This document shows, one piece after another, positions 58,042-59,280 of a stretch of 64,000 bases of DNA (position 1 is the first letter of the stretch; every line of letters begins with the position of its first letter). A model generated the notes under the pieces. The model saw only the letters and a list, made by a program, of their open reading frames with translations. It was not told where the DNA came from and did not search any database. Origin of the DNA: Paraconexibacter algicola (GTDB lineage Bacteria > Actinomycetota > Thermoleophilia > Solirubrobacterales > Solirubrobacteraceae); the NCBI RefSeq assembly GCF_003044185.1, contig NZ_PYYB01000001.1, positions 372,001 to 436,000 of the forward strand. Direction: 5' to 3'. A program made the position numbers and the translations under genes.

Positions 58042-59280
58042 TCACCGCGACGCGCGCTTGCGCCACGCGCTGAACGACCCGATCGAGCCGGTGTGCGGGC
58101 GCACGAGCCACGGCCAGGGGTGCACGACCGCCGGCCGGATCGCGGCCGCGCGGCGGCGCCAGCCGGGCACGGGCGTGAAGGTCGCCGCGACCGGCCGGCC
58201 CGACAGCACGGAGACGGGATCGCCGAGCCACACCTCCAGCGGCCGGCGCGCACCGAGGTCGGCGAGCGTCTGGGCGAGGAACACGAGCCGCTTGCCGGAC
58301 AGCTGCCAGCCGCGGAGCAGCTCGCGGTCGAGCACGAACACCGCGGGCAGGTCGGGGTGCGCGGCGAGCGCCGGGTCCTCGTCCCCCAGCGACTCGGCGG
58401 TCAGCCACACGGCCTCGGGCTCGCCGAGCTCCGCGGTCGTGCTGGGGCCGGCGGTGCGCTCCACGTCGGGGTCGCTGCGCAGCAGCGGCGACGGCTCGGG
58501 CAGCCGGGCGGGTGCCGTGGCGTCGTCGGGCCAGTCCTCGATCGGGCACGCGTCCCGCAGCGCGCAGCGGCCGCACAGGCCCGGGGCGCGCTTCTCGGTC
58601 TGCCAGCGGCTGAAGCCGTACGCCTTGCCGGTGCCCGCGCCGATCGTCCACTGCCAGCCCAGGCGGTTCGCGGCCCGCGAGCCGTCGAGCAGGTGCGTGA
58701 AGAACCGGTCCTCCCCGGCCCGCCAGTCCCAGCCGGCGCGCACGGTCCAGTGCGCGGACATCCACATGCGGGTCTGGTTCACGAGCCAGCCGTCGTCCTC
58801 GAGCTCCCCGACGACGAGGTCCATGCACGCCATGTCCCGCGGCCACGGGTCCTCCCACGGCGTGCCCGCCGCGACCGCGGGCGCGTATCGCAGCGGCCGC
58901 GCGGTCGCCGCGCCGAGCCGCGCGTAGAGGTGGCGGGAGTACTCCTGCCAGAGCAGCTCGTCGCGGAACTTCGTGCGGTCGCGCGCGGGACCGTCCCCCA
59001 CCGCCGCCCAGACGCGCGGCAGCGGCAGCAGCCCGTGCCGGATGTACGGGGACAGCCGGGAGGCACCGCGCCGCCCGACGGGCAGGACCTCGCTGCGCGT
59101 GCGCGCGTAGCCGCTGACGTCGTAGAGCCCGAGCGCGGCGTCGGCGGCCGCCTGCCCGCCGGTGAACGCGCCGCTCACGGGCACGGGACCCGGGGACTCG
59201 GCGTACAGGCCGCCGAGGTGCTCGGCGACCCAGGCGGGCGCGTCGTCGATCGTGGGGACGGGGAGCGGCAGATCGGCCAT
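58042..59280 (-). CDS. photolyase/cryptochrome-like flavoprotein with swapped domain order
   Basis: This 412-residue protein carries the photolyase FAD-binding domain at its N-terminus (residues 60-225): ASRLSPYIRHGLLPLPRVW, DELLWQEYSRHL, RMWMSAHWTVRAGWDW, and LLDGSRAANRLGWQWTIGAGTG. A Cys cluster follows (C236, C239, C245 in LCGRCALRDACPI). The C-terminal 120 residues (AVWLTAES to GSFSAWRK) resemble the antenna alpha/beta domain that normally comes first: AVFVLDRELL, KRLVFLAQTLADLG and VWLGDPVSVL. This is the reverse of the usual order. It probably binds FAD; DNA-repair or light-sensing function is not shown. Confidence 0.78.
   Translation of the reverse strand: MADLPLPVPTIDDAPAWVAEHLGGLYAESPGPVPVSGAFTGGQAAADAALGLYDVSGYARTRSEVLPVGRRGASRLSPYIRHGLLPLPRVWAAVGDGPARDRTKFRDELLWQEYSRHLYARLGAATARPLRYAPAVAAGTPWEDPWPRDMACMDLVVGELEDDGWLVNQTRMWMSAHWTVRAGWDWRAGEDRFFTHLLDGSRAANRLGWQWTIGAGTGKAYGFSRWQTEKRAPGLCGRCALRDACPIEDWPDDATAPARLPEPSPLLRSDPDVERTAGPSTTAELGEPEAVWLTAESLGDEDPALAAHPDLPAVFVLDRELLRGWQLSGKRLVFLAQTLADLGARRPLEVWLGDPVSVLSGRPVAATFTPVPGWRRRAAAIRPAVVHPWPWLVRPHTGSIGSFSAWRKRASR

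What the first reader, a model, noticed from the sequence alone, without database searches (positions are those of the whole stretch)
58042..59280. Photolyase-like protein with FAD domain first and antenna-type domain last, plus a Cys cluster
Classical photolyases and cryptochromes have the alpha/beta antenna domain at the N-terminus and the FAD domain after it. Here residues 60-225 carry the FAD-domain motifs (SRLSPYIRHG, WQEYSRHL, LLDGSRAANRLGWQW). Residues 288-408 read like the antenna domain (VFVLDRELL, VFLAQTLADLG, VWLGDPVSVL) and even end in SFSAWRK, like the close of that domain. That is a circular permutation. Three Cys (C236, C239, C245) in the linker could bind metal or an Fe-S cluster with one more ligand. 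I know of no described family with this plan.
Basis: partly seen in the sequence, partly recalled or inferred. Interest (0 to 1): 0.72.

Follow-up and report, generated by a model that had tools for sequence, protein, structure and literature searches.

The report
Domain-swapped Fe-S photolyase (SPL/Phr6 type)

Summary
Window 58042-59280 (minus strand) encodes a 412-residue protein with the photolyase FAD domain first (about 20-262) and the photolyase antenna-type alpha/beta domain last (about 286-410). Evidence: AlphaFold2 models (pLDDT 94 and 91), for whose C-terminal part the 50 best structural matches shown are all N-terminal domains of photolyases or cryptochromes; profile alignment giving two non-collinear blocks, with null shuffled controls; and Deinococcus relatives, one with the domain as a separate gene. 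Every full-length relative examined keeps the order. The claim that no family with this plan is described is wrong: reverse-order photolyases were published as NewPHL (2020) and as Synechococcus/Cyanobium Phr4-Phr5/Phr6 with the same four cysteines (2022), and the class appears as SPL (2021). This is a new member of a known kind, most likely an Fe-S CPD photolyase. Open: CPD or (6-4) substrate, and whether the C-terminal domain binds a pigment.

The parts
58042..59280 (-). whole gene, 412-aa reverse-order Fe-S photolyase (SPL/Phr6 type)
   Evidence: ORF; relatives conserved over the full length
58495..59223 (-). FAD (catalytic) domain, residues about 20-262
   Evidence: PF03441; PDB phmmer match to class I CPD photolyases 70-217; full model aligned over 1-262 to photolyases, best 5kcm Z 16.4
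58825..58827 (-).
   Evidence: 84/84 invariant; aligns with the Cys conserved in 9/9 Fe-S (6-4)-type photolyases
58546..58575 (-). C236, C239, C245, the other three Fe-S ligands
   Evidence: 84/84 invariant; align with C-x2-C-x(n)-C of Fe-S (6-4)-type photolyases, 9/9
58648..58959 (-). active-site residues E108, W111, N168, M172, W186, N205, W209, W211
   Evidence: match E. coli-type class I CPD photolyase residues at equivalent columns; Fe-S (6-4)-type enzymes differ at N168, W186, W209, W211
58426..58494 (-). interdomain linker, residues about 263-285
   Evidence: low conservation; lies between the two aligned domains
58051..58425 (-). antenna-type alpha/beta domain at the C-terminus, residues about 286-410
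   Evidence: AF2 domain model; VIA-align rows are all photolyase/cryptochrome N-terminal domains; hhalign prob 95.5

Best explanation
A DNA photolyase of the reverse-order Fe-S class (SPL, the same plan as Cyanobium Phr6). The N-terminal helical domain binds FAD and takes the lesion into its pocket. Blue light excites FADH-, which donates an electron to split a cyclobutane pyrimidine dimer. FAD is photoreduced through the Trp pair W209-W186. A cluster bound by C152, C236, C239 and C245 stabilises the end of the FAD domain, as in Fe-S (6-4) photolyases. The C-terminal antenna-type domain packs back on the FAD domain, closing or supporting its site, with or without a pigment. Shown here: domain identities and order, the conserved four-Cys set, CPD-type active-site residues. 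Inferred: FAD and cluster occupancy, light-driven CPD repair, Trp-pair electron transfer, packing and role of the C-terminal domain.
For: FAD domain: and hhalign prob 99.8 against canonical FAD domains. C-terminal domain. Active site: N168, W186, W209 and W211 are as in class I CPD photolyases (20/20, 19/20, 20/20, 20/20) whereas Fe-S (6-4)-type enzymes have H, P, M and a variable residue there; E108 and M172 equal E. coli-type residues but class I relatives here often have Q and L, so they discriminate less. Four Cys. The own genome also carries a separate Fe-S (6-4)-type gene (PF04244) and a class I-like gene. 25 of 28 survey genomes with this protein carry PF04244, against 11 of 112 without it, which makes a second (6-4) enzyme less needed. 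The 2021 SPL class is summarised in a citing paper as CPD repair enzymes with an Fe-S cluster.
Against: No activity, cofactor or cluster was measured here. PMC9426592 predicts a (6-4) function for Phr4/Phr5 from the Fe-S cysteines and reads its survival data as consistent with it. The position of E. coli R342 is Q169 here and D374 is S201, so the pocket is not identical to class I. The co-occurrence with PF04244 is not corrected for phylogeny.
Confidence: 0.7

Rival explanations
1. It is a (6-4) photolyase: the Fe-S cluster marks (6-4) specificity, as PMC9426592 proposes for Phr4/Phr5 and Phr6.
For: Four Cys at the same columns as Fe-S (6-4)-type photolyases; that paper's prediction and survival data.
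Against: The His pair of the Fe-S (6-4)-type enzymes (HH at the column of N168 and the one before it, 9/9) is absent; N168, W186, W209, W211 are CPD-type. Genomes with this gene usually carry a separate PF04244 enzyme.
Confidence: 0.15
2. It acts mainly on CPDs in single-stranded DNA or as a photoreceptor, like NewPHL or DASH proteins.
For: NewPHL relatives with the same order are reported to act on CPDs in single-stranded DNA.
Against: No sequence feature tested here separates single-strand from double-strand substrate; catalytic residues are intact.
Confidence: 0.12
3. The C-terminal part is an unrelated Rossmann-like domain that only resembles the antenna domain.
For: Such alpha/beta folds are common; the window protein's own C-terminus has no Pfam match; Foldseek gives no match under E 0.001.
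Against: All 50 VIA-align rows shown are photolyases or cryptochromes over their first 145-170 residues; hhalign 95.5 against at most 1.0 for shuffles; a Deinococcus C-terminus and a separate Deinococcus ORF match PF00875 at E 1e-4 and 2.3e-4, and Deinococcus C-termini reach hhalign 98.4.
Confidence: 0.03

Closest known systems
Phr4/Phr5 and Phr6 of marine Synechococcus/Cyanobium (PMC9426592)
   Same: FAD domain first, photolyase domain last; four Fe-S cysteines, in RS9916 Phr4 C169, C254, C257, C263 (spacing 85/3/6), here 84/3/6.
   Different: Cyanobacterial; often two ORFs; predicted (6-4) by the authors. Sequences were not compared here.
Short photolyase-like proteins, SPL (Xu et al. 2021, Mol Biol Evol 38:4505; paper not held)
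   Same: No N-terminal alpha/beta domain; Fe-S cluster and CPD activity as summarised by citing papers.
   Different: Cited as lacking the alpha/beta domain; here that domain is present at the C-terminus.
NewPHL (Emmerich et al. 2020, NAR 48:12845; paper not held)
   Same: Inverted domain topology; alphaproteobacterial proteins of this type have FAD domains related to this one (hhalign 99.8).
   Different: The alphaproteobacterial sequences lack the four-Cys set, and their C-terminal domain could not be matched to canonical antenna domains (prob 2.1).
Fe-S (6-4) photolyases (FeS-BCP: PhrB, CryB)
   Same: Four Cys at equivalent columns; FAD-domain fold, 5kcm Z 16.4, rmsd 3.6, 248 aligned.
   Different: Antenna-type domain (PF04244) is N-terminal; His pair in the active site; not this gene's family.
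Class I CPD photolyase
   Same: FAD-domain active-site residues.
   Different: Antenna domain N-terminal; no Fe-S cysteines.

Membership tests
Photolyase/cryptochrome superfamily | FAD domain PF03441 above the curated cut-off | tested here: met
   35 bits against cut-off 27
Photolyase/cryptochrome superfamily | alpha/beta antenna-type domain in the same protein | tested here: met
   at the C-terminus
Reverse-order Fe-S photolyase (SPL / Phr6) | FAD domain N-terminal, antenna-type domain C-terminal | tested here: met
   two non-collinear hhalign blocks: 26-225 to 183-389 and 288-360 to 4-85
Reverse-order Fe-S photolyase (SPL / Phr6) | four conserved Fe-S cysteines | tested here: met
   84/84 for all four; also in the five survey loci that a motif scan missed
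Reverse-order Fe-S photolyase (SPL / Phr6) | direct sequence relationship to R. fascians SPL or Cyanobium Phr6 | not tested
   the named reference sequences were not at hand; assignment rests on plan, Cys spacing and lineage
Reverse-order Fe-S photolyase (SPL / Phr6) | light-driven repair with bound FAD and Fe-S cluster | not testable with these tools
   needs an assay
NewPHL in the narrow sense (alphaproteobacterial type) | inverted order without Fe-S cysteines | tested here: not met
   order met, but the four Cys are present
Fe-S (6-4) photolyase (FeS-BCP) | N-terminal DPRP domain PF04244 | tested here: not met
   no PF04244 match in the protein; FAD domain begins at the N-terminus
Fe-S (6-4) photolyase (FeS-BCP) | His pair in the active site | tested here: not met
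   V167-N168 where 9/9 have H-H
Class I CPD photolyase | antenna domain before FAD domain | tested here: not met

The most novel reading that the evidence does not exclude
The Fe-S 'short' photolyases are not short ancestral enzymes that lack the alpha/beta domain. They are full two-domain photolyases with the domain order swapped and a CPD-type active site, so arguments that place them at the root of the family because they lack that domain lose their basis. The 2020 and 2021 papers could not be read here and may already say part of this.
Probability: 0.55. Interest if true: 0.42.

Novelty: new member of a known kind. Interest (0 to 1): 0.28.

Why it matters
It is a well-supported case of domain order being reversed in an ancient DNA-repair enzyme in many Actinomycetota, with relatives in Deinococcus. 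It ties the SPL, Phr4-6 and NewPHL literature together, bears on whether SPL is a primitive form, and gives a clear testable disagreement: CPD-type active-site residues against a published (6-4) prediction for the same plan.

Tried and rejected
Unrelated C-terminal domain: rejected. Three-ligand metal site: rejected, C152 is the fourth. Membership of the Fe-S (6-4) family: rejected. Pfam on the window protein's own C-terminus found nothing, so the case rests on profiles, structure and Deinococcus relatives. Alphaproteobacterial C-termini against canonical antenna domains: no match (prob 2.1), although they reach 28-51 against Deinococcus C-termini. Phylogeny did not resolve whether all reverse-order proteins form one clade (AU p 0.32; bootstrap not settled). 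The 2020 and 2021 primary papers are not held. The full-length model against PDB covers 1-262 only, so packing of the two domains was not tested.

Full report
Check of the observation. The ORF lies on the minus strand at 58042-59280, starts with ATG at 59280 and encodes 412 residues. In the protein itself Pfam recognises only the FAD domain (PF03441, E 1.2e-8). The best PDB sequence matches are class I CPD photolyases over residues 70-217.

The family. Full-length relatives at 56-69% identity were found in 80 loci, mostly Actinomycetota plus some metagenome bins labelled otherwise, and in close relatives of the source genome. In an even sample of 396 genomes of the phylum, 28 carry it over essentially the full profile; in the family of a Williamsia genome, 8 of 81 do. 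Every full-length member examined has the same order. In 84 aligned sequences C152, C236, C239 and C245 are all invariant.

The domain order. AlphaFold2 on 83 aligned relatives gave pLDDT 94.4 and pTM 0.93. The full model matches photolyase FAD domains over residues 1-262 (best 5kcm, Z 16.4, rmsd 3.6, 248 aligned). The C-terminal part folded alone gave pLDDT 90.7 and pTM 0.84. The 50 VIA-align rows shown for it are all photolyases or cryptochromes, aligned over roughly their first 145-170 residues (Z 7.9-9.4, rmsd 2.6-3.5, 121-133 aligned). Foldseek's nine best are class II photolyases, E 1.3e-3 to 2.1e-2, and no match is under 1e-3. hhalign of the C-terminal family against canonical antenna domains gave 95.5 (E 1.5e-8); 30 column-shuffled versions reached at most 1.0, reversed versions 0.5, and the FAD part of the family 2.6. 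Whole against whole, hhalign returned two non-collinear blocks, 26-225 to 183-389 and 288-360 to 4-85, which is the signature of a permutation. The swap is of whole domains; neither domain is cut.

Independent support from Deinococcus. Reverse-order relatives lie on Deinococcus plasmids. The C-terminal part of the D. psychrotolerans protein matches PF00875, the canonical antenna family, at E 1e-4 when scanned alone, and that of D. wulumuqiensis at only 0.15. In Deinococcus sp. QL22 the two domains are separate, overlapping ORFs (ATGA junction); the second, 173 aa, matches PF00875 at E 2.3e-4 and the family profile at E 2.6e-16. These PF00875 scores are below Pfam's own cut-off of 26.6 bits.

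Fe-S site and substrate. On a joint alignment the four Cys of this family and of Deinococcus relatives fall on the four Cys of Fe-S (6-4)-type photolyases (9/9), and the set is absent from class I and from alphaproteobacterial relatives. The active site, however, is of the CPD type at the columns that discriminate: N168, W186, W209 and W211, without the HH pair of the Fe-S (6-4)-type enzymes. E108 and M172 also equal E. coli-type residues but class I relatives here often have Q and L there, so they weigh less. PMC9426592 predicts (6-4) activity for reverse-order Phr4/Phr5 from the cysteines; the residues here argue the other way. The source genome also holds a PF04244 gene and a class I-like gene. 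25 of 28 survey genomes with this protein also hold PF04244, against 11 of 112 without it (Fisher p 5e-16; relatedness of genomes not corrected, and the 112 assumes that no unlisted genome of that sample carries this gene).

Comparison with what is known. Reverse-order photolyases are published: PMC9426592 describes Phr4/Phr5 and Phr6 with the domains reversed and the same four Cys, and calls Phr7, the NewPHL type, an FAD domain followed by a Z-domain. PMC13274461 cites NewPHL/SPL as having inverted domain topology and single-strand CPD repair. [quoted passage not shown] The primary 2020 and 2021 papers were not held, so what they say about the C-terminal domain was not checked. From memory, not checked here: the 2021 paper characterised a Rhodococcus fascians protein, also an actinomycete. 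The finding is therefore a new member of a known kind.

Evolution. The FAD-domain tree does not reject a single clade of all reverse-order proteins (AU p 0.32) nor a grouping of the Fe-S reverse-order forms with Fe-S (6-4)-type photolyases (p 0.44); the bootstrap had not settled. Whether the swap happened once is open.

Surroundings. In the window the gene starts 32 bases after a Cpn10 gene on the same strand, with an EamA transporter gene further upstream. Among 80 relatives the commonest neighbour, in 24 loci and usually adjacent, is a family whose representative in L075 is a DUF2256-DUF3253 protein.

Noticed in passing
L116:2360-3651: Deinococcus sp. QL22 encodes the FAD domain and the antenna-type domain as two overlapping ORFs (ATGA), like Synechococcus phr4/phr5; natural split or frameshift not decided.
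   Followed up: partly
L032-L111 flanks, e.g. L075: A family whose L075 member is a DUF2256-DUF3253 protein is the commonest neighbour of the gene (24 of 80 loci, 22 within 150 bp). The own genome has one DUF2256 match, on another contig.
   Followed up: partly
G158:C25:30616-33332 and G220:C3:436595-438429: The gene lies next to a PF04244 photolyase gene on the same strand in two genomes.
   Followed up: no
L130, L142, L143: Three survey matches carry one TGA inside the matched stretch; a motif scan still finds C152 to the C-terminal domain in one open frame, so the place of the TGA was not determined.
   Followed up: no
L006: A second, more distant four-Cys relative (38% identity) in the same taxonomic family, cut by the contig end; it does not join the main group in the tree.
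   Followed up: partly
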